A DNA stretch of 64,000 bases from assembly GCA_019828595.1 (NCBI GenBank), contig JAHQRK010000024.1:620001-684000 (forward strand), given 5' to 3'. Below are positions 863-46,236 of this stretch, in pieces. Within the stretch, counting starts at the first letter, position 1. Every line of letters begins with the position of its first letter. Position numbers and translations under genes: made by a program. Source of the stretch: Aphanomyces cochlioides. Taxonomy: Eukaryota > Oomycota > Saprolegniomycetes > Saprolegniales > Verrucalvaceae. The notes below the pieces were generated by a model, which worked only from the letters and a program-made list of their open reading frames with translations, had not been told where the DNA came from and searched no databases.

Positions 863-934
863 CTCCCTAACCGGGATTCGAACCCGGGTCACCTCGGTGA
901 GAGCGAGATATCCTAACCCCTAGACTATTAGGGA
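863..934 (-). tRNA. tRNA-Glu (CTC), left copy
   Basis: This 72-nt gene is the inverted copy of the tRNA at 8051-8122. The acceptor stem TCCCTAA/TTAGGGA, the T-loop GGTTCGAATCC and the anticodon loop CTCTCAC (anticodon CTC) are all present. A T-run follows the 3' end on the minus strand. No CCA is encoded, as usual for eukaryotes. Confidence 0.93.
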
Positions 935-1033: not shown

Positions 1034-4000
1034 TTTTGTTCGTCCACCTTGGCGGGTCTTCGTCATTGGAAGGCGACGCACATGCCACACGTTCCACAGG
1101 CTGACCACGTGGCTTGTCGTATCATCACAAAGCGTCAAACATTGCGCCATGGCTCTGGATCATGGAAAGCTCCAACTTGGCTACTTCGTCTACCACGAGC
1201 GGCCGAGATTGTTCATGGATGTCTGGATCGATTTTTGGACAAGTCTCCAACATTCCACAATATCTCCAAGGCCTACGACATGCTGGTCAATGATATCCGC
1301 TCCCAACTCAAAGAATTCCATTCTCAACGATTGGAGAAACAACGTCTGCCGTTGAAGAAGTTAGCTGTGGAGATCGCTTCGCTTTTGCAAGTCCCCAACA
1401 TGCGTCAAGATGCAGTGCTGGTGGATCGAGTGCGAGACCTTCAAAAGCAAATTCACGAGCTGCAAGATCGAGACAAGCAGTTTCGTCAAGACCAGGCGTT
1501 CCAACTTCACTTGTACAAAGCAGAGCGCTCGTCCAAGTTCCACTTCATGTCTCCTGTCCCTACCCCCTTGAAGAAGACAGTCTTCAAAGAGTTGGTGGAT
1601 GTCAATGGAAATGTTGTCTCCAATCAACAAGGCATGTCTGACGTCCTGGTCGACTACTACAAGGACTTGTTTGCAGCTCCCGAGGTGCAGCGATCTGGAG
1701 ACGAAGTGTCGTCATTTCTGACCCCATTGACTCGACACAAGCAACTGCCAGAGCAAGCCCAGAAAGAGCTGTCGGCTCCCTTGCGCGCCAACGAGTTCTA
1801 TCATGCTATTCGACACAGCAGTTCGAACTCAGCGCCAGGTCCCAACGCTCTGCCATTCGAAGTCCTCAAACTTGCACCTCACAAGTGGTCGTTGGTATTG
1901 GAGCTGCTATTCACACACCAGCTCCATTCTCACCCTCGCTTGACTCCCATGCAACTTGTCAGTACGCTGGTGTTGCTGCACAAGAAAGGCCCCAAGTCAA
2001 AAGCCAAGAACTATCGGCCCATTAGCCTACTCAACACGGATGTGAAAATCCTGACGAGTATTCTGGCTTATCGACTTCAGCGCCACATTCGACACATCAT
2101 CCACCCGGACCAGCAAGGCTTTATCCGTCGAAGCAATATTCAAACCAATATTGCACGACTGGATGACATGCTGCACCACATCAAACTACACAGTCCGTCC
2201 TCGATGGTGGCACTGCTTGACTTTGAGAAAGCTTTTGATCGCGTGGACCACGCGTACTTGCTCCGCGTCCTCCGTCACTATGGCTTTCCCGAAACCTTTG
2301 TTGACATGGTTCGCGTACTGTACTCGGGCCGCAAGTCTCGCATCTTGGTGAACGGCTTCTTGTCCAAGCCAGTTCACATCTCACGCGGTGTGTTGCAAGG
2401 TGATCCACTGTCGCCACTTCTGTTTGTGATCGCTTTAGAACCGATGTGCCAACTCCTACGGCAACACTCCAACTATGGCATCAAGTGTGGGGATCGCTAC
2501 CACACTGGGAGTTACTTTGCCGACGACTCGCAACTCTATGCGGCAAATGAGACGTGCCTCCACCGGCAGCTTGCATTGGTTCAAACCTTTTGCGACAAGT
2601 CTGGTTTCCGACTCAACGTAGACAAGACCCAAATTCTGACCTACAGCCAGTTGAATGGGAACCTTGCCTCACTACAAGTTACTTCCGACAGTCCCGTGAA
2701 GGCTCTTGGTATCTTGGTTGCGCCCAATCTTTCTCCATTGGCACGTTTCAATTACGTGTTTGAGAAGTTTGTGGCTCGCTTGTCTTTGTGGCTCTACAAG
2801 GCTCGAACCATGGCCGGAAAAGTCACTATCCTGCACAGCATATGTCTGCCTGTGTTATGGTACCAACTGGCTTTTGTCCCTGCCGACAAAGACCTGGCCA
2901 AAAAGATCGACAAGGCCATGCTTCAATTTATGCATGGTGAAGAAATCAACCCATCCTCCTCTGTCCATGGCCTCCGTTTGATCAAAAAGGAGATTCTATT
3001 CATGCCGAAGAAGTCCGGTGGCTTAGGCCTGCACCATGCACTTGCTTTATGGCAACAACACAACCGCTCTGTCATGATCAGATGCATTCAAGCCATCACC
3101 ACCCCACCCCGCAAGTCTGCCATGTCCGCCTGGATTACGCCGGGCTATACTCTCCTCGAGAAGGCTTTTCATCCATGGGGTTCCCCCCGAGATCTCCTCT
3201 TGGCAAATGGCTCTTCTGCATTCATCAGACAACTGTACAAGAATCCCAATATCACTCCAATGTGGAAAGCCTTATTGAGTAGCTGGTTTGAATCTCGCTG
3301 GACTCCGTACGGCTGTCCAAATCACATCTCATCTTTGGATGTTCCCCTTTGGCACAACTCGTATCTGCCTGGACTCGAAGACCTATACGATCAGTGCTCT
3401 ACATCGACGCAAGACCAAGCCAATGTATTGGCGTCGCTTCACATCACGAAGTTGTCGCATTTGTTGACTCCGTGTCAGCGAGTTTGGCCAGCTTCGATCT
3501 TGTTCGACAAAATCAACCGTGCCTGCCGCCAAGCCAATTTTGTCCCTCCAACGAAACAATGGATCTCAATCTTGGTGACCAAGTTATCACGATTGTTTGA
3601 GATTGTTTCTGAAGAGGATGCTCCCGTGTTCCACTTGCCGACGCCAAGCTCTGAATGGATGGAATGGCACTGGATGATACACCCTGACTCGAGTCCGATC
3701 TTGTTGGCGCTTGCGACTTCGAAATCGGCTAAGATCAGAGCTTCTCCAGCTGTCAGCTCGTCCATCCTTCCTACCAAGCATCTCAACCTGCCATCGAACT
3801 TTTACGAAGACCCCAAGCGCCTTACCCAACTTGCCGCCTTCCTCCAACCCGACCACATTCTCCCTTGATATGGAGAGTTCATTTTCAAGACCCTTCTCCG
3901 CGCCAACGCCATGCAATATCTGTTTCAGTACCAAGACCCCAAGCCGACGTGTGTCTTCTGTCGTGTCAATGAGACGTACGAGCATTTCCTGTTCTCTTGT

Positions 4001-8050: not shown

Positions 8051-8122
8051 TCCCTAATAGTCTAGGGGTTAGGATATCTCGCTCTCACCGAGGTGACCCG
8101 GGTTCGAATCCCGGTTAGGGAG
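8051..8122 (+). tRNA. tRNA-Glu (CTC), right copy
   Basis: A 72-nt cloverleaf with acceptor stem TCCCTAA/TTAGGGA and discriminator G. Box A spans about 8058-8073 and box B is GGTTCGAATCC (8101-8111). The anticodon loop CTCTCAC gives anticodon CTC. The layout closely follows eukaryotic tRNA-Glu. There is no intron. Confidence 0.95.
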
Positions 8123-14139: not shown

Positions 14140-15596
14140 CAGGATAACCTGTCAAGTGAAACACTACTCCGTGGACTCTTTTGTTCAACATACGAGGTGT
14201 TTCGAAACCTGAGGGATGGAATATATAACATTTAAGAGGTTTCTTGATTTTCAAGCCATCCAGAACACCATTTGGAAGACTGCGACGATGGAATGCTACA
14301 GCCAGCCGAATGCCTTGGAGCTCTTTTGAGAGATCTATACCAGTATGGCGAGCCCACATTTCTACTTTGTCAATGGCTTCCACGACGTCTCGAGTTGGCG
14401 GTGGGGCTTCTACCACACCATCTTCCTCATCCTCACTTTCGACTTCAGGTTCTGGTTCAAATATCGAAGATTCCCATGAGCTTGTGCTGGTGTCGAACGC
14501 TGAAACATTTTCTTCGACGCACACACTGTCGTTCGCCACACCAAGAGAGTTCATCATCGAAGAGACGTCGTTTTCAATATCGGTCCCAATGGAGGTCTCA
14601 ATGCGTTCAATATTCGATTGAAAATCCCACACAAAATCAGTATCACCTTCTCGCCGTAGTGCTCGAAAGCCACACAGCGTCTAACGGCTGAGTTTCGCAA
14701 GTAGTATTTGAAGGCAGAAATGCAACCTTTACATGAGTCAGCTTTGACTCAGGGACAACGTGGCATGGCGCATTATCGATGACGAGTAAAATCCGCCGAC
14801 CTTCATCACTCATTCGCTTGTTGAGCCACATACAATAACTTGAAAAGATCGAGCCATTCATCCATGCCTTCGAGTTGGCAAACCATAATACTCCGAGGGG
14901 CAGCAATTTATTGAAACACCTTGGCATGAACGATTTGTTTATCACGAGCAACGGTAGCTTCTCACCAATGCATGATGCTGTCAGCAGGATTGATACTCGT
15001 TCTTTTGCCTTTTCACCTCCCTTACATTCCTCGCCACGCGCAATTTGACTCTTCGTTGGAATGCCACGCCAGAACAGACCAGTCTCATCGCAATTAAATA
15101 CGTCGCGTGGGCTGTAGTCTTTTACAAGCATGGCAATTACATTTTGCCAGTCTTTGACTGCAGTCATATCCACTACAGCTGACTCACCAGAGAGTGTTCT
15201 AAATTGAATGTTGTGTCTTGCTCGAAAGTTTTGGAGCCAGCCATTGGAGGCAGTGAAGTTCGAAAGATTCATGGTCTTCGCACACCGTCGGGCCGCCTCT
15301 TGAATCATGGGACCAGTAACACTTATGATTTTCGTCGATCTTGCTTTACAAAACCACATATAGACGCGTCGGTCGAGCTCGAGAGCGTCTCCAACCAAGC
15401 GGCAAGGTCTCTTTGAGTTTGGATCGCCGTTTTCGGCGATTTGAGCGGCAATTTGGTCCCTGCTTTTCTTGATACGCGTGATCATAGCCTTGGAGCAATT
15501 GTACTTGGTGCATATCGACTTGTAGGGGGTGCCTTTCTCAACAAGGGCCATGATTTCCGATCTCTCTGACAGACTCAATTCAACCATGTACGTCAC
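14140..15596 (-). pseudogene. pogo/Tigger transposase, frameshifted
   Basis: The first 317 codons (15596-14643) carry an N-terminal psq/CENP-B-type helix-turn-helix (LSERSEIMALVEKGTPYKSI), a second helix-turn-helix region and a DDE_1 catalytic core with FNCDETGLFW and LLVIDNAPCH. The third acidic residue is in ETQPLDA, 31 residues after the second, within the usual pogo range. A +1 shift just after QPLDA moves the C-terminus to another frame, which continues with an acidic linker and VEMWARHTGIDL. That frame reads out through the terminal repeat to 14078, so the original stop is uncertain. The single shift suggests recent inactivation. Confidence 0.85.
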
Positions 15597-21341: not shown

Positions 21342-23023
21342 TTAATCGTCGCGTGTAAACTTGAGACCGCCATACTCAATCGTCGGACGGGTCGAATTGA
21401 CATCAATCGAAATATAAACCGTGAATCCAGAAGCACCCCATTTCAAGTACGTTGGATCTGGAGTGGCAATCAATGGACCTGTGTAGGCTCCCCACTGAAG
21501 CGTGAGTGAATTGTTTTGTAGGAATACCTTCGGTATGCCAAAATAGCCAGGCGACTTGGTCGCCTCATAAGACCCCACGAGCTTGGTTTGAGTGTCTTTG
21601 ATGACGACTCCTGGCGTTTCCCATGGCTTGCCTTTGAACAAATGCGCATCGCATTCTTGATCGTCCTTGCCAGGATATAGCGAGACGTGCGCCTTCCACA
21701 TCGCATCGAGTTGATTCACGGGAATATCAAGGAATATTCCCATCACATACGATCGAATTGACTCCAGAATATCCGAGTTGGGAGTTGGTTCGGTGTCGAT
21801 GGGTCTGACATTCCTTCCAAGTGTCACTCCAAGGTTTTTGACTGGGGATGAATCCATTGCCGAGCTCAAAGCCATTCGTCTTTCCGTTCATGAAGAAAGC
21901 ATTGCCGAACAAAATTTGGCCGGCAAAGTCAATACCATAGCCAGACCCAAGGGAGCTGCCTTCAGGGTTGAACTGCACGCCAAAAACTGCCGCAGCGACT
22001 GGGGATAGTGGAAATATGGTGTGCCCCGTCACCATGTCACGAACGAGCTGTGTATTCTTGAATACTCCCGCACCATAGTTCAGAAGAAACTTTCTAATGA
22101 TCGCCATGTCATGGGCTGAGGATACAATCGAGCCCGCTGCGAAATAGCCATTCAATGGTGTCAAAGCCACTTCTGAATCGTTAAGTAGGCTAAAGGGCCG
22201 ACTGATTGTCTTGGCACAAGCAAGATGACCGTATGCCAAGGTGCTCTTTTGGGGAACATCGGCAGGTTTGCCAAACGTCTCGTTCATGCCAATGGGGTCC
22301 AAAATTGAGTGTTTGATGTAGTTGAACCACGATTCGTTGGTCGCTTGCTCGATAACTTGGCCCAAGATTTCAAAATTCAAGTTTAAATACGCGTATCCAG
22401 GCCGAAGAGCACGATCGGAAGTATTAAAGTCGTCCAAATGTTTGACCAAATCGCGCTCTGAGTTCCAAACCCCGACGCTCCATGCAGTGTCCCCGTCGTG
22501 GTCACCAAAAACCGAATTCATCGACAGCAAATCCGCGAGAGATGTGTATTTCTCGGCATACTTGTCTTGCAATTGAAACCATGGAAGTTCTTGCTTGACG
22601 GGATCATTCCATTCCATGCGACCTTCGTCAATCTACACCACCAAGCCTCTCAATATACTTGTCAGTTTTCTAGACAAGTCTTACCAATTTCGCAATGCCG
22701 AGCGCAACAAATGTCTTGGTGAACGATCCGACTTGGAAGATTGTATGCTCCGTGACGTGAGTGTTATTACGGCCAAATTGAGTCGTCCCGAGGCCTTGGG
22801 CGATCACAGTTTGATTCTTGTACACGACTGAAAACATGACACCAGGAATTCGATACTCCTTCATTTGTTTCTCGACAAATGCAATCGCTTTGGCTTTCTT
22901 CTTGGTGAGGCCAAGTCCATCAGTCTTTTCAATGGCTTCAGGAACAGTCAGGTTGGTTTCTGCGCCAGCTGATGCAGCAGCAATGGAGAAGCAGACACAG
23001 GCAACCAAGTAGAATACTCGCAT
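21342..23023 (-). pseudogene. secreted serine beta-lactamase-like protein, copy 1, one frameshift
   Basis: Exon 1 is 23023-22685, the intron 22684-22633 (52 bp) and exon 2 22632-21342. The product starts with a signal peptide (MRVFYLVACVCFSIAAASA) and has the class C beta-lactamase/penicillin-binding fold. The active-site motif is SFTK in FQVGSFTKTFVALGIAKL, and the second motif is a YxN-type YLN in YAYLNLNFEILG. PF00144 members outside bacteria act as peptidases or esterases rather than in drug resistance; LACTB is one. A one-base shift near 21845, within the CCCCAGTCAAAAACC context, separates the catalytic part from about 165 C-terminal codons whose sequence is otherwise intact. This is either a young pseudogene or a sequence error. 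Confidence 0.8.
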
Positions 23024-25536: not shown

Positions 25537-28038
25537 CTACAGAATTCGACCAAAGGCATGCCACAGAGATAATACCAACTCTGGGAATCGTTCACACACA
25601 AATCTCCCCACAGCCAGTTGCTTGCTGGCTGTCGAACTCACATTTTCATCACCGCAAAGTATACGCCAGACACTTGGAGGTTGTTCAGATACGTGCTGCC
25701 TCAAATTTCGAATCCACCGGACAAGGTCAATGACGCTACGCTTGTCATAGTTTCTTCGGCGTTGCTGGAGCATATTTAATTCAGACGGGAGTCGGGCTTG
25801 CCAATCTGTGAACAAAACTCTCACGCGCATCCAGTCCAAGGCAAAGCTGTTGTTGGCCAACGATTCAATATAAATCATCTTGGAGTCCACTGTCCAGAAG
25901 AATGGATGGTCGAGAATTGTGTTGAGAGTAGGACGCATCTTGGGATCGACATGAGTCATAGAATCCACGAGATCTAAAGCCTCAATCGATAGACTGGGGA
26001 TAAGATATTCAAGTCCACCTCCAGTTAAAGCATATGCGACGCATTGGCCAAGTGCATAAACATCCTCGGCCATCACGTCTTGAACTCCATTTCCATTATC
26101 GTCGGTACCTTGCTTTACATAAACACAGAGTAACTTTGTCCGTTGGTGTACATCCAAATAAAAAGAAGCTGGCGAGAGAGCTCCATGAGTTCGTTGATGG
26201 TGGTGTAGGTACTGCACCGCTGAAATCGCTTCTTGAATGCAAGTTGGCGCAGAAGGTCCATGTTGGACGACAGAATGTGCCCAAGATGTCCATGGTCGCT
26301 GAAATGCATGACGCCATGTCTGAGTACACTCTTCATGGACAAGAAATATTGAATTCGACGCACTCGTATCTTCCCAGTCGACAATATTCACGAGATGGCG
26401 ACCACCACGAAGCTCTGAGGTCCAACCCATTCTCAATAATTGCTGGGAGTACTGCCGATCCAAGTTGCCTTGAACTTTGCTAAGTTTGCGGATAAGCACA
26501 GCTCCCCAGTCTGCGTGCGTGCCGAAATAAATGTTGGGCTCTAATTCCAATTCCATGACGAGTTTCCCGTGTTGCTCCACAAAGTTTTTCTTTGTCTTGA
26601 CATGAGAAACGACATTGTACGAGTCTTTTAGAGATGATAAAATTGGCTCAGTTCTTGGAGATTGTTTCTTCTCTTGGATCGTCACACTGGGTATTGATTT
26701 TGTGGTTATTTCTGCCGCCAAGGCATCGTGCACTGCTTCACATGCTTGAACTATATCCAACCGGCTAGCGTTCTTTGCAGCAAGGAAAGCTCTGGGCTGA
26801 TGTTTCGATGGTAGACGCTTGTAAATCCATAAAAAGAGAGCGACAGATACGTGGCGTGCAGTAAATACCAAATCAAGCCTTGGAAGTGCATCTGGGATTT
26901 TCGTCACGACGAGTTCAAGCCCTTCAAGCCAATTGGTACCAACGACTAGCTGAAGTACCGAGCAGCCTTCTCGGTCAAGGCAATAAATATCAGCTTGATG
27001 GTCGAGCAACACGCGACACATTGAAGCATCTCGGAGAGCACAAGCTGTGTGGAGCAGCGAATCACCCGTTTCCAGGTCAATCGCTTGGACTAATGATGAC
27101 GGCGACACCGACAATAGCCATTCAGCCAAAGTTACATGACGCCCTTGCACAGCAAGCGATAAACATTTTGGACTCAAGGCCAGGCTTGTGTTTTCAACGA
27201 GCCATTGTACAACAGAGAGATGACCATAAGCACAAGCGACGTCTAGCGCATGCCACTTTTGAGCATTAAGCGCTGTTACGTCCAAGAGCGGCGCAAAATA
27301 TTGTACCAAATCCAAATGTCCTTCCATGGCAGCTACATGAAGACATGTATCTCGGTGGTTGTTGGTCGCTGAAATCGATAATTGACAGTCCATGGCGAGA
27401 AAACGAACCATGGCCAGTTGCCCTGCCTCGGTCGCAACATGTAAAGCTGTTGAGAGACACTCGTCTGTGATATGCCACTGAAATGACGCCCAGCCGATAT
27501 TGTCAACAAAGTTTGTCAGGCGGCCAACGTCACCAGCTCGAACAAATGCAAAATACGTTGATACAACCGCTTCCTGGGGCCAAGATGGACCTATATCAGC
27601 ATCCCCATCGTCGTCTAAGCAGTCAGTGCAAATCCCTACACCATGTTCCTCGAGCCATGCAACGACTGCCAAGTGGCCTTGAAATGCAGCAAGATGGAGA
27701 GCATTGTCGCCTTGAGCGTTGACAGTGTGTAAATCAAAGCCTGCGACCGCATGCAACGCTTGCACCAATGCCAAATGTCCACTCGAAGCAGCTAGTAAGA
27801 GGGCCGTATTGCCATCTGCATCAACTACGCCGTGAAGCTGACCATAAACTTGACGCACTTCTGGTTGGCATCCTGATAGCCAAGCAGACATGTGCTCTTT
27901 CAGGTAGTTTTCTTCGAGAATCTGTAGATTTCCTGACGCAGCTTGGGCAAGGAACCACGCACGTTCTTTCTTCTGAGCATCGGCGTCATTTGAACTGCTT
28001 GATGGACTGGGTCGATGACGTCGCTTTTGTCGGCCCAT
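25537..28038 (-). CDS. ankyrin-pseudokinase-KEN protein, RNase L-like architecture
   Basis: A single exon of 833 residues. About 72-400 hold ankyrin repeats (GNTALLLAASSGHLALVQAL, DTCLHVAAMEGHLDLVQYF). About 505-715 form a kinase-like domain: a VAIK-type lysine is possible in GAVLIRKL, but the catalytic loop reads HGALSPASF, without the HRD aspartate, and no DFG is visible. The domain ends MRPTLNTILDHPFFW, as in IRE1 and RNase L. About 716-833 match the KEN ribonuclease domain: DW..L, Y764, SVIDLVRWIRNLRQH and FVCERFPELV. Arg777 and His782 keep the R-N-x3-H spacing of the IRE1/RNase L active site. There is no signal peptide, luminal domain or membrane segment, so it is not IRE1. A regulated RNA-cleaving sensor is inferred; ligand and substrate are unknown. 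Confidence 0.85.
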   Translation of the reverse strand: MGRQKRRHRPSPSSSSNDADAQKKERAWFLAQAASGNLQILEENYLKEHMSAWLSGCQPEVRQVYGQLHGVVDADGNTALLLAASSGHLALVQALHAVAGFDLHTVNAQGDNALHLAAFQGHLAVVAWLEEHGVGICTDCLDDDGDADIGPSWPQEAVVSTYFAFVRAGDVGRLTNFVDNIGWASFQWHITDECLSTALHVATEAGQLAMVRFLAMDCQLSISATNNHRDTCLHVAAMEGHLDLVQYFAPLLDVTALNAQKWHALDVACAYGHLSVVQWLVENTSLALSPKCLSLAVQGRHVTLAEWLLSVSPSSLVQAIDLETGDSLLHTACALRDASMCRVLLDHQADIYCLDREGCSVLQLVVGTNWLEGLELVVTKIPDALPRLDLVFTARHVSVALFLWIYKRLPSKHQPRAFLAAKNASRLDIVQACEAVHDALAAEITTKSIPSVTIQEKKQSPRTEPILSSLKDSYNVVSHVKTKKNFVEQHGKLVMELELEPNIYFGTHADWGAVLIRKLSKVQGNLDRQYSQQLLRMGWTSELRGGRHLVNIVDWEDTSASNSIFLVHEECTQTWRHAFQRPWTSWAHSVVQHGPSAPTCIQEAISAVQYLHHHQRTHGALSPASFYLDVHQRTKLLCVYVKQGTDDNGNGVQDVMAEDVYALGQCVAYALTGGGLEYLIPSLSIEALDLVDSMTHVDPKMRPTLNTILDHPFFWTVDSKMIYIESLANNSFALDWMRVRVLFTDWQARLPSELNMLQQRRRNYDKRSVIDLVRWIRNLRQHVSEQPPSVWRILCGDENVSSTASKQLAVGRFVCERFPELVLSLWHAFGRIL

Positions 28039-28186
28039 GTCTTATTGATAACCCCTACACTCCGGTTCAATCTAAACCCCAAAATTATTTTAAACCCTAC
28101 ACCCCATCAAGTTTGAACCCTGACATCTCATCCCCTTCAACCCCAGTGACTTGAACTTATCTATACGCAAGAAGACACGTGAAGTC
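28039..28186. promoter_or_regulatory. shared divergent promoter region
   Basis: Only 148 bp separate the start of the KEN-domain gene (minus strand) from that of the ABHD18-like gene (plus strand), so both promoters must lie here or overlap the genes. The segment contains several CCCCT/ACCCC-rich repeats (ACACCCC, AACCCC). No TATA box was assigned. Confidence 0.5.
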
Positions 28187-29589
28187 ATGCTACATCCATG
28201 GAGCCTGCTGAGCGCGCTACGACGTCCAGCAAGGCTTCTAGATCACGTGACGTCGGCCCACCACAAATACCTAGACTATGCCTGTGCTTCGCTGACTCAC
28301 AACCCGCTATTCTTTCCCCAGGGCTTCTTTGGAGAAGGTTGGGGCGATGTCCACATTCCATCGATTTTGGAGAAGCGCATAACAGACCACCATGAAAAGT
28401 ACGCAGTGCGACTCATCGACTCAATGGACCTTGAAGTCATGAAGTCCTCGCCACTCAAGCTCCAGAAAAAGCCAACTGTGACCATCTCTGGTCGGTTCAA
28501 ATCAACATTACGCGACGGCGATGTCTTGCTTCCTCCTGAGAGTCAACAAGCGTATTTTGAACTCGTCGTACCCGATTCTATGCTTAATCGGTCATTCATG
28601 TCGATTGATGGCCGTGGCAAATCCTTGGTTGTGATTCTTCCCGGTACGGGAGAACATGGATGCACTCATCGTCGACGTACAATTGCCGAGCCGCTTGCTC
28701 GCTCTGGGGTCGCTTCTCTAGTCTTGGAAGGCGCATTCTATGGCAAACGTAAGCCAAAAACGCAAAAGGGATCCAAGCTCAGACGGTATGCTTCCACTCC
28801 ATGAATTCAAAATAGCTAATGACTTGATCGACGCTAGCGTAAGTGATTTGCCTATTCTAGGCATTGCGACGATCGAAGAAACAAAGTCATTGCTGACTTG
28901 GTTCAAAGAACATTATGGTTTTGACCACGTCGTTGTCGCGGGTGCAGATCCCTCTTGCTGAAATTTCTGAAGCTTGTCCACCCTAGGTAGTAGTATGGGA
29001 GGTCTCCATGCCGCTATGACAGCTGCCCTTTGTCCATTCGACGTCGGCGTCGCGTCGTGGATTGCACCACCGTCTGCAATTCCAGCATTCACACAAGGCT
29101 TGCTCTCTCGGTCGTGCAACTGGCAATCCTTGCATGAGCGAGAAGACTTGGCTGTGATTGACCACTTGCTGTCGAATCAAGTCGACTACTACACGACAAA
29201 TGTAAGCTTGAATTTGTTCCTTTTGTAATCATCACATGGAATAGGCGGAGGATGAGATTGCAGCGCAAGTGAAAAAGCGACTCGCGGCGTTCTTATCCAT
29301 CACGAACATTGAAAACTTTCCAACCCCTCGGCGGCCTGACGCTGTCGTGTTTTCCCAAGCGACTGAAGATCAATACATTGGCGACAATGCAATGCAATGG
29401 GAGGTAAGCCGATTCAAAGTGTTCAAGCAGATGTCGTACCATTCATAGAATTTGCGCCGACGGTGGCCTGGAGCTCAATTTCGTCGCGTCAAAGCAGGAC
29501 ATGTTAGCGGCATCTTGTTTGAAACACAAGCGTTCGTTCAGACGATTCAGGACGTTGTACAAGTCCTCCAAAGTTCACGGGGCTTGTAA
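28187..29589 (+). CDS. ABHD18-like alpha/beta hydrolase, 5 exons
   Basis: The exons 28187-28785, 28838-28941, 28987-29201, 29245-29403 and 29449-29589 give 405 residues; the introns are 43-52 bp. The fold matches the ABHD18/DUF2048 family: VILPGTGEHG (oxyanion region), LVLEGAFYGKRKPK, and a nucleophile elbow GSSMGG that is created across the second splice junction. SWIAPPSA follows, then a late GHVSG that supplies the likely catalytic His. The Asp may be in the ATEDQYIG region. Human ABHD18 has been proposed to act on mitochondrial phospholipids; the substrate here is unknown. The in-frame TTG and other codons upstream of 28187 are not needed, because the first ATG gives a good N-terminus. 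Confidence 0.87.
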
Positions 29590-35127: not shown

Positions 35128-36531
35128 TTGTCGGACGCGTCAGCCGACAACCAGACGTCCACTTCGGTGGACATGCAATTGGACCCGTCAGAGCAAGCGA
35201 AGCAAGCAATGGCGGCATCCAGGAGTCGTTACGGGCAGACTCCAACTGCCTTCGGGCAATATCAATCAGTAGCGGTGCCGACCCATGCCACTACGACCAA
35301 CCTAGACGCGCGATCGCGCTCTAGCAAAAACAATCCTGCGGAATTCCAAGGCTACGGCAGCGACGTTGGTGGCAACGAGGAAGGCGCGGATGCCGATGGA
35401 TCGCCGATGTGTCCCACCGATGATCAGTCAAGGTTGATTTCGATGTTGGTCAAACAAAACCAAGATCTGATGCTACAGCTACATGGCAATCGATGTCCCG
35501 CGCGAATGCATGAAGACGACGACGACCTTGGCGAGTGGAACATTGATGCCGCTCCCGGACTGTCTTCAAACAATGACCCTCGCTTGCACGTTCTTGCGCT
35601 CGAGCCGCTACAGCGGTTCGGTGGATCAGCCGATGGCACTGACGCGGCGGCGAGTTTCCTTCGGCGCTTTGAGGAGAACGCGGCAGCCAGTGGATGGACA
35701 GACGACGAAGCCAAGCGCAAGTTCCGCCTCATAGTCGGTCGAGCGGTCCAAGATTGGTACAACCAGCTACGCGCCGACGAGCGATCCACTTGGAAGGCCG
35801 TGCGTGCGAGCTTTGTCCGCGAGTACATCCTCAACCCGGTGCCAAAGCAGGAGGCCTACTATGCGATGCGTCAGAAAGAGAATGAGACCATCCGCGAGTA
35901 CCTCTTCCGCCTCAACGCGGCTGCCACGAAGATCGGCCTCTCCAATCGGAAGCACTTCGTCGACCACTTACGGTGCTTTTGTAATTCGTTGGCCGACCCG
36001 AGCCAAGCCAAGTGGATCTCCTACGCGCGCCTCTCCTCAATGAACGACTTGATGGAATACTTGAATGATCAGCGCCACACTGAAGCTTTGTTCGAGCACC
36101 GCAACCAGCATCAACCAGTCCAACAGGCCGGTAATCAGCGGCAAGAGCGCACCAGGGTTTCGGGTATCAACCACTTAAACGCCGTGTCATCGATGGACAT
36201 GGCCAAGCTAGCAGCGTCGGCGACTGACTCCGTGCGAACCGAGATCTTCGCTTTGGGACTGAACAACCACGAAGCGTGCCGTGAAGTTTGCCGTGACTGT
36301 GGAAAGACGCACCTCAAGTTGGATGGCTTGTGCTGGTCGACGGTCTTTTGCAGCCTATGCCAGCGCATGGGGCATCCGGAGATCAATTGCTTCAAGGCTT
36401 GTCAACTCTGCGCGACGCCGCACCACAAGGCTGATCCGTGCCCGACTCGTCAACAAGCTGCTGAGCTGAAGGAGTTCCTGCAAAGGCTAGACATCCCCGA
36501 CATGCCTAGCCTGGATTGTTTAAATTTGTAG
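35128..36531 (+). CDS. gag-like polyprotein with two zinc knuckles
   Basis: The frame is open for 467 codons. The first in-frame ATG is near 35173, so the true start or use of an upstream non-ATG start is unclear. The N-terminal third is polar and disordered. The middle (about 155-290) matches the retrotransposon gag capsid-like domain: FLRRFEENAAASGWTDDEAK, FRLIVGRAVQDWYNQLRADE, and a later KQEAYYAMRQKENETIREYL. Near the C-terminus are two CCHC knuckles, CSLCQRMGHPEINC and CQLCATPHHKADPC, preceded by CRDCGKTH. No protease motif follows and the frame ends at 36531. It would package RNA into particles; all enzymes must come from elsewhere. Confidence 0.85.
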   Translation: MSDASADNQTSTSVDMQLDPSEQAKQAMAASRSRYGQTPTAFGQYQSVAVPTHATTTNLDARSRSSKNNPAEFQGYGSDVGGNEEGADADGSPMCPTDDQSRLISMLVKQNQDLMLQLHGNRCPARMHEDDDDLGEWNIDAAPGLSSNNDPRLHVLALEPLQRFGGSADGTDAAASFLRRFEENAAASGWTDDEAKRKFRLIVGRAVQDWYNQLRADERSTWKAVRASFVREYILNPVPKQEAYYAMRQKENETIREYLFRLNAAATKIGLSNRKHFVDHLRCFCNSLADPSQAKWISYARLSSMNDLMEYLNDQRHTEALFEHRNQHQPVQQAGNQRQERTRVSGINHLNAVSSMDMAKLAASATDSVRTEIFALGLNNHEACREVCRDCGKTHLKLDGLCWSTVFCSLCQRMGHPEINCFKACQLCATPHHKADPCPTRQQAAELKEFLQRLDIPDMPSLDCLNL

Positions 36532-40379: not shown

Positions 40380-42020
40380 TTATTCAACACGAACAAAGGT
40401 CAAGTCATTGTAGGCTAGTTGAGGCTGGCGTGTATTGAGCTTTGAAAGAATAAATGCAATCGTTCCGTCGTTATAATTCACATCCCAAATCAACAACATC
40501 GATGGATCTTCAGTTGCAAATAATGACTTTGAATATACCCCATACTGCAAAATGACATTGCTGTCTTGTTGAAAGATTGTCGCATTGCCATAATATCCAG
40601 GGGACACAATCGGTGTGTAATTGCCCACAAGTTTTGTTTGAATGCTTTGAGGAATATTAAGACCAGGCGTTTTCCGCGGCTTTCCTTGGAAAATGTACGT
40701 CGTTTCATGCTTCAGTCGTGCGAATTGTGACACATACGCATTCCACATGGCTTCCAATTCATCTTGAGGGATATCGAGGAAGATGCCCATGATATACGAT
40801 CGGATCGCCTCGCCAAGGTTGATGCTTGGTGTTCGAATCGATTCTTTTGGATACACATTGGTTCCCACAACCACTCCTAGGCCTTCGCTGGGGATAAATC
40901 CATTCGCAAGAATAAAACTGGGTGTACCACGCCCTTCATATAGAAATCATAGCCAAAGAGCAGCTTGCCGACTAAATCGAAGCCATAACCATTCCCCATC
41001 GCGTCTCCATCAGGATTGAATGATAGACCATACATTGCAGCAAGTCTTGGATTCAATGGAATCACAGTGTGGCCAGTCGTCATGTCTTGCACGAGTTTTG
41101 TGCTTTTCAAAATGCCAGATCCTTGACGAAGAAAGAAATGACTGAGCTTTGCCATGTCTTGAGCCGTGGATACAATCGAGCCTGCCGCCAAATATCCATT
41201 CCAAGGGACTAATATTCCCACAGGAAAAATGGCCAGAGGAGAGTGACCTTCGTGGCGAGGCATCACCCGTTCGACCAAAAGTTTCATTCATGCCAAGAGG
41301 ATCCAAAATCGAGACTTTCACGAAGTCAAACCAGGTCATGTTGGTCACATGCTCGATGACTTGCCCCAGGATTTCAAAATTCAAATTTGAGTAAGCGTAG
41401 CCAGCTCGTAATGACCGGTCTGAAGTGTTGTAGTAGGCTAAGTGCTCCACTATTTGGCGCTCGGTAGGCCAAACGCCAACTAGCATAGGCAAATCGCCAG
41501 CATGGTTGCCAAAAACTGAATTCATAGACAATAGATCGGCCAATGTTGTGTACTTTTCAGCATTTTTATCTTGTAATTGAAACCATGGAAGATGCTGCTT
41601 GACTGGATCTTTCCACTGCATTCGACCTTCGTCAATCTACTCCAAAGGCCAAGTCAAGGGTGACTAATTCCACAAAGGTCTTACCAACTTCGCAATGCCA
41701 AGCGCTGTGAATGTCTTGGTGAACGATCCAATTTGGAAGAAAGTATGCGCCGTCACCGGGGTATCATCCCGACCAAACTGAGTCGTTCCCACGCCTTGAG
41801 CTATCACGGTCTCGTTCTTGTACACGACAGAAAGCATCACGCCTGGCAGTGGATATTCCTCGAGTATTCTTTCGAGAAAAGCCAACGTCATGGCCTTCTT
41901 CTCGCTGAGAGTGCGGCTAGGATGAAGATTATTGCTTTCGACAGCGGCGTTGTTGGACAAATTGACGCCCCATAGAGCCACGACGGCAAAGATAAACCCG
42001 ACCAAGTACAACGACTTCAT
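40380..42020 (-). pseudogene. secreted serine beta-lactamase-like protein, copy 2, broken
   Basis: Exon 1 is 42020-41685, the intron 41684-41637 and exon 2 41636-40380, the same structure as copy 1 at 21342-23023. It has a signal-like N-terminus (MKSLYLVGFIFAVVALWG), the SFTK active-site motif in FQIGSFTKTFTALGIAKL, and YAYSNLNFEILG. A frameshift with loss of about 14 codons near 41220 removes the segment before GYLAAGSIVSTAQD. A second shift near 40925 precedes the C-terminal region, which is otherwise intact to the stop at 40380. It is probably a pseudogene. Confidence 0.8.
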
Positions 42021-44359: not shown

Positions 44360-46236
44360 CTCCTCTGTTCCGCAAAAATCGTACCATTCACTATTTTGGA
44401 CTGGACTTTATAAATCATACCAAATTTTGACTTGAATAAAGTATACAAAATAAGAGAGGCATGACTTAATTTTTGTATGGAACTGTAAAATCTAATATAT
44501 TCTCTTCCATTACTCATATAGCTACTTCGTCAAGGCAATTCATGAGATCTTCCAAGTTTGACTCGTCTTCAAGGCGGCGATTCAACTTTGACAAAGCCAA
44601 AACAAGCGAGTCTTCTTCACAGCTCAAATTGAAAGTTGACAAGTCTTCGATTGTCCCATTTTTGTTCATATGCGGGAGCTTGTAAGCGTTGGAGCCTTCG
44701 ATATCAATACTGATTGGAAACACTTTTTGTAGAATGACGAAAGTTTTCCCCAATGTGTCGCTTGGCAATGCGCCGAACGAATAAACAACAGCATCAATCA
44801 AGTCATCAATGTTTGATGGTGTCGACTGATACTGAAGACTCTGAATAGCATTAAAAAATCCAAAGTCTAACACATTGAAGTCAGGGCTATTCGGGGGCTG
44901 ATTTCGCATTTGAATATTCCAACCGTCGCTGCAATCCATTTTGCATATCGCTTTGTTCACCTTTGATGAATGTGGGCCAGCATTGTCTTGCTGGATAAAA
45001 ACTGTGCGTGTTCGCGCAGACGGAGGCATCTTCTCTTTGATCGCTGGAATAACCTTTGACGTCAGCATATCCAAGTATGCGTCTGCAGTCACACTCAATG
45101 GACGAGTGACAAGAGCACCCTTGGGTCGTTTGAAACTTGATCGCAAAGCGGGCTCGCGGGAAACGAATGGCCAAACACCAAGCTTGCCGTCAAAGTACTT
45201 GTGACTGTGGAAGTCGTATCGCGGTCGGGCTACCGCAGCCAGAAACATGACCTTCGTGATGAAGCGCTTGCTTTGAACATGTCGTGTGGGCAGTTGCTCG
45301 TCGTCATAGACATAGTACTTACCGTTAACTTTTGTCAAGTAGAACCACTTTTCATCAACGTGCACAATGTCATACATGCTGTCGAAAACGTGGTTCCGCT
45401 TGACAAAGGATAACGCAAACTCCAGTCTTGTCTTCTTGTTGTCTTCGGTGAGGTATGGCTTGAGACTGTTGCTTCTTTTCTTCAGCCGTCCTTGTGATTT
45501 CATGTGTCGCATCAATGTTGTTCTTGACACCTTGGCTGCGTGTGCAAGAGTTCTGAGAGACTGGCGCTTGTTCAGTTCGACTGACTTGATGGCTTCCTCG
45601 ATCAACTCATGTGTCCTTTTTGTTTTGCGACCACAATTTCCTATTCCAAGTACACCCGTGAAAATTTATATGGCTAGAAATTGATTCCTCTATAAATGCA
45701 TACCTTTCATGCGGCTTGCGGTGTCGGGAACTTTGGACCCATCGGCGATTGATTTGCATGCTTGCTGCCACACCCGTCGTACAGCAGCCCTGTTGCAGTT
45801 GAATGTAGACGCAGCTTCATTGATTGAGCCATGTCTGAGCTTCCCGCATTTTGAATTGGCCAGCAAAAAGTCAAAAACGGCTCGCCTCTCGTCGGAGGTG
45901 AGATTGAGCGTTCGCACAGATCGATTGGGTGCAGCATGATGGTGGTCGACTGGCCTGTAGATGGCGGAAGGCATTGCTTTCGCGTTGGGCGTGTTCTCTT
46001 ATCGGTAGGATTAAAAATAAAGTCGTGGCGAAGAAAACATTGATTCGATATAGGTTAGAACCTATTTTGATGCCACATTTCGCGGCCATTATTTATCGCT
46101 AGAACGAGCTCAAACCAGCGAATCAAAGAGCATTATTCGCGCTTTCTGGTGAGCCAATAGGATTCCGAATACGAGAAATACTGCAAAAATGCCGCCAATC
46201 CAAAGAATTTGGTACGATAATTTTGGACCAGATGAG
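44360..46236 (-). mobile_element. mariner-like element (plant type), copy 2, apparently intact
   Basis: A 1877-bp element flanked by TA (44358-44359 and 46237-46238). The ends CTCCTCTGTTCC.. and CTCATCTGGTCC.. are inverted repeats with a shared ATCGTACCA further in. The transposase gene is open, so this copy may still be autonomous. Confidence 0.88.
44514..45974 (-). CDS. mariner transposase (DD39D), intact, one intron
   Basis: Exon 1 is 45974-45704, the intron 45703-45641 (63 bp) and exon 2 45640-44514, giving 465 residues. The N-terminal half has helix-turn-helix motifs (AASTFNCNRAAVRRVW and LRTLAHAAKVSRTTLMRHM). The catalytic core has VHVDEKWFYLTK, FIQQDNAGPH and QPPNSPDFNVLDFGFF. Exactly 39 residues separate the second and third Asp, the spacing known from plant mariner-like transposases. 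RPKGALV and KVMFLAAVARPRYDFH are also family hallmarks. All three catalytic residues and the frame are intact. The other mariner copy shares the intron position but has a frameshift. Confidence 0.92.

What the first reader, a model, noticed from the sequence alone, without database searches (positions are those of the whole stretch)
25537..28038. RNase L-like ankyrin-pseudokinase-KEN protein in a probable oomycete
Seen: ankyrin repeats, a kinase-like domain without the HRD Asp or DFG, and a C-terminal KEN domain with the R-N-x3-H active-site pattern (Arg777, Asn778, His782) and no membrane segment. Known: this domain order defines RNase L, which vertebrates use with 2'-5' oligoadenylate against viral RNA; IRE1 has KEN but a luminal sensor and membrane segment. 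Inference: the lineage may have an independent or ancient RNA-decay sensor, possibly for antiviral or stress defence, with a ligand that could be read by the ankyrin repeats.
Basis: partly seen in the sequence, partly recalled or inferred. Interest (0 to 1): 0.88.

Follow-up and report, generated by a model that had tools for sequence, protein, structure and literature searches.

The report
Ankyrin-pseudokinase-KEN ribonuclease in Aphanomyces-like oomycete
A water-mould gene encodes a soluble protein built like the vertebrate antiviral enzyme RNase L (ankyrin repeats, a dead kinase and an RNA-cutting domain), and it looks like the genome's only enzyme of that RNA-cutting family, although what switches it on is unknown and it is probably not the vertebrate signal.

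Summary
A single-frame 833-aa gene on the MINUS strand (28038..25537) has ankyrin repeats (Pfam E 7e-30), a degenerate kinase (below cut-off) and a C-terminal KEN ribonuclease domain (PF06479, E 3.7e-10, above cut-off). KEN residues R777, N778, H782 are intact; the kinase HRD and DFG aspartates are gone; there is no membrane segment. An Aphanomyces euteiches protein has the same plan at 95% identity, so it is no assembly artefact. Three protein searches found otherwise only RNase L-type or KEN-bearing proteins, those named being mammalian, and only when RNase L letters were in the query. In its own 76-Mb genome it is the only KEN above cut-off, also with a mouse IRE1 KEN query; Las1 was found as control. 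KEN similarity does not separate IRE1 from RNase L. The kinase is not specifically RNase L-like. Best reading: a cytosolic, ankyrin-gated, metal-independent endoribonuclease, assembled independently of vertebrate RNase L or remodelled from a lost IRE1. RNase L orthology and 2-5A sensing are unsupported; ligand, substrate and antiviral role are untested.

The parts
25537..28038 (-). Whole gene, single open frame, 833 aa (stop codon included in the coordinates)
   Evidence: 95% identical 833-aa protein in A. euteiches
26719..27828 (-). Ankyrin repeat region, about residues 71-440 (Ank_2, Ank_4 and others; best stretches listed include 75-117, 110-134, 199-283, 325-352)
   Evidence: Pfam E 6.9e-30; PDB ankyrins E 1.8e-26
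25894..26568 (-). Pseudokinase-like region, residues 491-715: HGA for HRD, no DFG Asp, beta-3 lysine uncertain (R517 or K518), IRE1-type end RP-x7-HPFFW (702-715)
   Evidence: Pkinase E 1.8e-5 below cut-off; PDB kinases E 3.9e-5; alignment
25540..25893 (-). KEN ribonuclease domain, residues 716-833; R777, N778, H782 pattern R-N-x3-H, W746, D771; a 12-residue insertion relative to RNase L at about 800-811
   Evidence: PF06479 E 1.2e-11; PDB IRE1/RNase L; alignment; model pLDDT 71-88 in 11 of 13 ten-residue blocks
28039..28186 (.). Short stretch (148 bases) between this gene and the first in-frame ATG (28187, + strand) of the divergent ABHD18-like gene; leaves no room for an upstream sensor/membrane exon
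   Evidence: sequence, ABHD18 Pfam E 1.2e-22, in-frame stops upstream

Best explanation
The gene makes a soluble, cytosolic, switchable endoribonuclease that works like RNase L and IRE1 at the business end. The ankyrin array binds an unknown ligand or partner, the catalytically dead kinase module acts as a dimerisation scaffold, and two KEN domains come together to cut RNA without a metal ion (expected 2',3'-cyclic phosphate ends). Shown here: the domains, the intact KEN catalytic residues, loss of kinase catalytic residues, no membrane segment, the same protein in two Aphanomyces-type species, and no second KEN found above cut-off in its own genome. Inferred: that it cleaves RNA, that dimerisation switches it, that ankyrin binding is the trigger, and that it stands in for the RNA-decay function of IRE1, a typical copy of which was not found. 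Origin: most likely an independent domain shuffle in this lineage (an IRE1-type kinase-KEN module joined to one of the genome's many ankyrin arrays), not an inherited vertebrate-type 2-5A sensor.
Against: No activity, expression or ligand data. The middle of the kinase region is so diverged that its fold is predicted with low confidence (pLDDT 28-44 over model residues 101-210), so dimerisation by this module is inference. The C-terminal tail of RNase L that follows KEN is missing, and KEN carries a 12-residue insertion. The linker/domain identity contrast is only suggestive, since no nucleotide comparison was possible. No KEN tree was built, so independent assembly against shared ancestry with RNase L is open. 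A second PF06479 match below cut-off (20.0 bits, E 0.033) exists at C6:1077599 and was dismissed by eye.
Confidence: 0.6

Rival explanations
1. It is a membrane-free remnant of IRE1: the kinase-KEN half of an oomycete IRE1 that lost its luminal sensor and kinase activity and gained ankyrin repeats, and it still serves ER-stress RNA decay through a partner bound by the ankyrins.
For: The match of residues 700-833 in the PDB is slightly better to IRE1 than to RNase L (30.1 against 27.9 bits); the RP-x7-HPFFW kinase end is that of mouse IRE1, while the RNase L rows printed keep only HPFFW; structural rows are led by IRE1; no other KEN above cut-off in the genome; the P. infestans kinome passage lists no IRE group and the text never uses the word IRE1 (PMC3019232, passages seen).
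Against: No ER-targeting or membrane feature was seen; RNase L evolves fast (recalled), so closer similarity to IRE1 is expected under either origin; the stretch 745-833 alone is slightly nearer RNase L, though neither match is significant (E 0.079 and 0.67).
Confidence: 0.25
2. It is a true RNase L orthologue (or an animal gene acquired by transfer) activated by 2-5A.
For: Same domain order; the shared core IRNL; the ankyrin part aligns weakly with RNase L (BLAST E 1e-5 for a two-sequence comparison).
Against: The kinase region scores only 11.1 bits against the RNase L kinase profile where the best shuffle reaches 6.7, and its best PDB matches are AMPK (E 3.9e-5) with IRE1 at 0.011. In the best BLAST register the contacts K89, E131, R155 fall on A224, V267, L288. 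No OAS1_C match (no control rang). Ankyrin similarity is shared by any ankyrin protein.
Confidence: 0.05
3. The KEN is not an active nuclease here; the protein is a scaffold or RNA-binding protein.
For: Missing C-terminal tail, a 12-residue insertion in KEN and a strongly degenerate kinase.
Against: Catalytic R, N, H and the supporting W and D are all present, in both species.
Confidence: 0.15

Closest known systems
Vertebrate RNase L (2-5A-dependent ribonuclease)
   Same: Ankyrin repeats, then kinase-like domain, then KEN; no membrane segment; KEN residues W, D, R, N, H
   Different: Kinase part more degenerate and not specifically RNase L-like; charged 2-5A contacts not kept in the register examined; lacks the C-terminal tail and has a KEN insertion; no OAS1_C match in the genome (no control rang)
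IRE1 (kinase/endoribonuclease of the unfolded protein response)
   Same: KEN with R-N-x3-H and the RP-x7-HPFFW kinase end, best structural matches
   Different: No luminal domain or membrane segment, ankyrin repeats instead, no active kinase motifs
A. euteiches hypothetical protein Ae201684P_005245 (P0002; UniRef name KEN domain-containing protein)
   Same: 833 aa, 95% identical, Pfam ankyrin and KEN domains listed
   Different: 42 substitutions of 833, none at R777, N778, H782, W746 or D771

Membership tests
KEN (Ribonuc_2-5A, PF06479) | Profile match above the curated cut-off | tested here: met
   40.5 bits whole protein, 45.2 bits KEN alone, cut-off 23.3
KEN (Ribonuc_2-5A, PF06479) | R-N-x3-H active site | tested here: met
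   R777, N778, H782, aligned to RNase L R667, N668, H672; importance of R, the polar residue after it and H from PMC3710099 passages
KEN (Ribonuc_2-5A, PF06479) | Fold of KEN | tested here: met
   KEN pLDDT 71-88 in 11 of 13 blocks, IRE1/RNase L as top structural matches; caution: 28 of the 30 alignment rows came from the RNase L-type search, the model's mean pLDDT is only 55 and the whole-chain rmsd is large (8-12 A in the top 40 VIA rows)
RNase L | Ankyrin + kinase-like + KEN order without membrane segment | tested here: met
RNase L | 2-5A contact residues in the ankyrin repeats (W60, K89, F126, E131, R155, R309, H311; list from PMC5927464 passages) | tested here: inconclusive
   Best BLAST register: W60 to S196 (one residue outside the alignment), K89 to A224, F126 to W262, E131 to V267, R155 to L288; R309 and H311 not covered; other registers possible. 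The same paper found that in mouse RNase L R309A had no effect and E131A, H311A, R155A only partial ones, and the baboon protein has N at 311
RNase L | Kinase domain of RNase L type | tested here: inconclusive
   11.1 bits against the RNase L profile, best shuffle 6.7; best PDB matches are other kinases
RNase L | Partner OAS in the same genome | tested here: inconclusive
   OAS1_C and Mab-21: no match in the one genome, but no control rang; SMODS one sub-cut-off match (18.9 bits), by eye a Trf4-like polymerase
RNase L | Groups with RNase L in a KEN tree | not tested
   Too few IRE1 lineages were in hand for a meaningful tree
RNase L | RNA cleavage on 2-5A binding | not testable with these tools
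   needs protein biochemistry
IRE1 | Luminal sensor and membrane segment | tested here: not met
   no window above 1.6 on the Kyte-Doolittle scale; neighbour gene's ATG 148 bases upstream; in-frame stops upstream
IRE1 | Active protein kinase motifs | tested here: not met
   HGA for HRD, no DFG Asp

The most novel reading that the evidence does not exclude
An oomycete lineage that lost IRE1 has independently built an RNase L-type enzyme: a soluble ankyrin sensor, an ATP-blind pseudokinase and a KEN nuclease, with an as yet unknown non-2-5A ligand, as its only KEN-based RNA-decay switch for stress or virus defence.
Probability: 0.4. Interest if true: 0.8.

Novelty: new variant of a known kind. 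Interest (0 to 1): 0.6.

Why it matters
RNase L is taught as a vertebrate interferon effector related to IRE1 (recalled). A protein with the same plan in an oomycete, where no typical IRE1 could be found, would show that ankyrin-gated KEN nucleases can arise or persist outside animals. It would also give a simple one-gene system to ask what a KEN switch senses when neither 2-5A nor the ER lumen is the input. The pseudokinase appears to have drifted further than RNase L's, which makes it a natural test of whether nucleotide binding is needed for KEN activation.

Tried and rejected
Chance or artefact: rejected (833 open codons, Pfam E-values, same protein in a second species). A second PF06479 match at C6:1077599 (20.0 bits, E 0.033, below cut-off): its frame carries nothing KEN-like by eye, taken as chance. 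Of the 10 other matches to the kinase-KEN query, three were read (C3:1776447, C89:1254244, C34:1876848) and are by eye ordinary kinase ends without KEN; seven were not read, four of them ending at or before query residue 250 and none past 266. SMODS match at C25: by eye a Trf4-like poly(A) polymerase, not OAS.

Relatives elsewhere: two viral-contig scans (one with the alignment led by the mouse IRE1 fragment, one with the whole protein) and one prokaryote-contig scan (the same alignment) gave no confirmed relative. The first two protein searches used the window's own words and found only P0002 (1 of 1,866 candidates at E <= 0.001, 1 of 43 at E <= 10). Whether A. astaci, A. invadans or Saprolegnia proteins are in that database was not checked, so absence there is not shown.

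Structure: the full-length model from two sequences is poor (mean pLDDT 40), so its matches (mostly other ankyrin proteins, RNase L first at rank 15) are not used. Four short fragments of the 32 hits (P0026, P0029, P0033, P0034) were left out of the alignment for the second model, and six proteins under 690 aa were left out of the profiles. A KEN tree was not attempted: only RNase L-type proteins, one mouse IRE1 fragment and the two Aphanomyces proteins were in hand. One search translated the wrong strand. An earlier count gave the ankyrin range as 44-378; recounted from the table it is 61-337.

Papers: no paper in the held library joins 'KEN domain' with 'oomycete'. Searches on KEN/ankyrin/RNase L/evolution/pseudokinase (1 paper), RNase L/OAS/invertebrate (21 papers, 20 listed), RNase L/ankyrin/protist/IRE1/2-5A (14 papers), HEPN/KEN (3 papers) and a six-term search (190 papers, 20 listed) showed no title about an ankyrin-KEN protein outside animals. 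This is not proof that none is in print.

Full report
WHAT WAS CHECKED. The reported interval holds one long open frame, but on the minus strand: ATG at 28038, stop ending at 25537, 833 aa. At window base composition 833 open codons would occur with a chance of about 2e-19. The source genome is held as 76.2 Mb in 94 contigs and the window is part of its contig 17.

DOMAINS. Pfam finds ankyrin repeats (Ank_2 E 6.9e-30, four related models), the KEN family Ribonuc_2-5A (E 3.7e-10, 40.5 bits, cut-off 23.3, residues 734-829) and a sub-cut-off protein kinase match (E 1.8e-5). KEN on its own scores E 1.2e-11. In the PDB, residues 700-833 match IRE1 (E 4.8e-6) and RNase L (E 2.4e-5), and those two families fill all 18 rows. 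With the first 45 residues of that query removed, RNase L leads (E 0.079) and IRE1 follows (0.67), neither significant, so sequence similarity does not decide between them. A KEN profile of 26 RNase L-type proteins gives 38.9 bits for the KEN, against at most 6.7 for 4,000 shuffles. Those 26 (19 named RNase L, 1 hypothetical mammalian protein, 6 unnamed) came from a search whose alignment included a human RNase L fragment; the shuffles control for composition, not for that choice.

ACTIVE SITE AND KINASE. Aligned to RNase L, the KEN keeps W746, D771, R777, N778 and H782 (RNase L W632, D661, R667, N668, H672). That R, the polar residue after it and H matter for KEN catalysis was read in passages of PMC3710099. 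The kinase-like part ends in RP-x7-HPFFW as mouse IRE1 does; the RNase L rows printed keep HPFFW. But HRD reads HGA (HGT in A. euteiches), and Y640/V641 stand at the Asp and Phe of the DFG-like motif. The five RNase L rows printed keep HQD or HED and DFD, so the present kinase is more degenerate, and ATP-Mg binding is doubtful (inference). Searched alone, the kinase region is nearest to AMPK (E 3.9e-5), with IRE1 at 0.011 through the kinase end only, and scores 11.1 bits with the RNase L kinase profile against 6.7 for the best shuffle. There is no hydrophobic segment of membrane type, and the first in-frame ATG of a divergent ABHD18-like gene lies 148 bases upstream, so a missed luminal and membrane exon is unlikely.

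DISTRIBUTION. In 5.8 billion proteins the window's own kinase-KEN and KEN words found only the A. euteiches protein. A profile search with added IRE1 and RNase L fragments returned 32 proteins at E <= 1: 19 named RNase L, 1 hypothetical mammalian protein and 12 unnamed of unknown source, each with a KEN domain listed; its length range excluded P0002 itself and longer IRE1 proteins. Viral and prokaryote contigs gave no confirmed relative. Within the genome, the KEN family model finds only this gene above cut-off (one further match of 20.0 bits dismissed by eye). A mouse IRE1 KEN fragment finds only this gene (E 2.3e-5). The gene's own kinase-KEN part finds it plus 10 weak matches (E 0.004 or worse), of which the three read are kinase ends. 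The control HEPN nuclease Las1 is found at E 1e-40. A typical IRE1 is therefore probably absent, although a KEN cut by several introns could escape a six-frame search. The P. infestans kinome paper, in the passages seen, lists no IRE group and its text has no occurrence of IRE1 (PMC3019232). Of the 112 matches to the whole protein, 111 lie within residues 61-337, i.e. in other ankyrin proteins (only 54 of 240 candidates were scored).

CONSERVATION. The two Aphanomyces proteins differ at 42 of 833 residues: identity 84% in the linker 441-490, 93% in residues 1-70, 96-99% in the two ankyrin segments counted, 95% in the kinase region, 94% in KEN. The catalytic residues are unchanged, although L779 beside them differs. 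This looks like constraint on the domains, but no nucleotide test was possible.

LIGAND. For 2-5A specifically the evidence is poor: no OAS1_C or Mab-21 match (in neither did a control ring), and in the best BLAST register K89, E131 and R155 of RNase L fall on A224, V267 and L288, with F126 on W262 (the contact list is from PMC5927464 passages). Ankyrin registers are ambiguous, and the same paper reports that several of these residues matter less in mouse RNase L, so this is a hint, not proof. The genome has four Argonaute-type Piwi matches, so RNA interference may be available for defence.

HOW IT MOST LIKELY WORKS. Inference from the known mechanism of IRE1 and RNase L (recalled, and PMC3710099 passages): ankyrin binding releases or aligns the chains, the dead kinase pairs back to back, two KENs complete the nuclease and cut RNA without metal. 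Here only the parts are shown. The placement as an independent assembly or remodelled IRE1 is favoured over RNase L orthology but not proved. The 2013 HEPN survey states in its Table 1 that KEN is fused to kinases 'along with ankyrin repeats, CCCH in some' and has no occurrence of oomycete or stramenopile in its main text (PMC3710099, passages seen), so the architecture is known; a report of it in oomycetes was not found in the searches made.

VERDICT. Real, well conserved, unusual for its host, mechanism plausible but untested: a new variant of a known kind.

Noticed in passing
window 28151-28804 (+): Divergent neighbour, ABHD18-like alpha/beta hydrolase (Pfam E 1.2e-22), whose first in-frame ATG (28187) lies 148 bases from the KEN gene's ATG.
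   Followed up: partly
window 21727-22617 (-) and 41010-41621 (-): Two separate beta-lactamase-family (PF00144) serine hydrolase-like open frames.
   Followed up: no
window 1049-3868 (+), 14643-15596 (-), 35128-36531 (+), 44514-45605 (-): Reverse transcriptase, Tc5-type DDE transposase, retrotransposon gag and a Tc3-type transposase match just below cut-off: several mobile elements in the neighbourhood.
   Followed up: no
window 863-934 (-) and 8051-8122 (+): Two tRNA genes on opposite strands with identical scores (59.7 bits), possibly an inverted duplicate.
   Followed up: no
G000 contigs C1, C23, C45: Four Piwi/Argonaute matches, E 4.5e-91 or better, in the same genome.
   Followed up: no
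G000:C6:328589-329230 (-) and 334045-334686 (+): Two ankyrin frames with near-equal scores to the query in opposite orientation about 5 kb apart.
   Followed up: no
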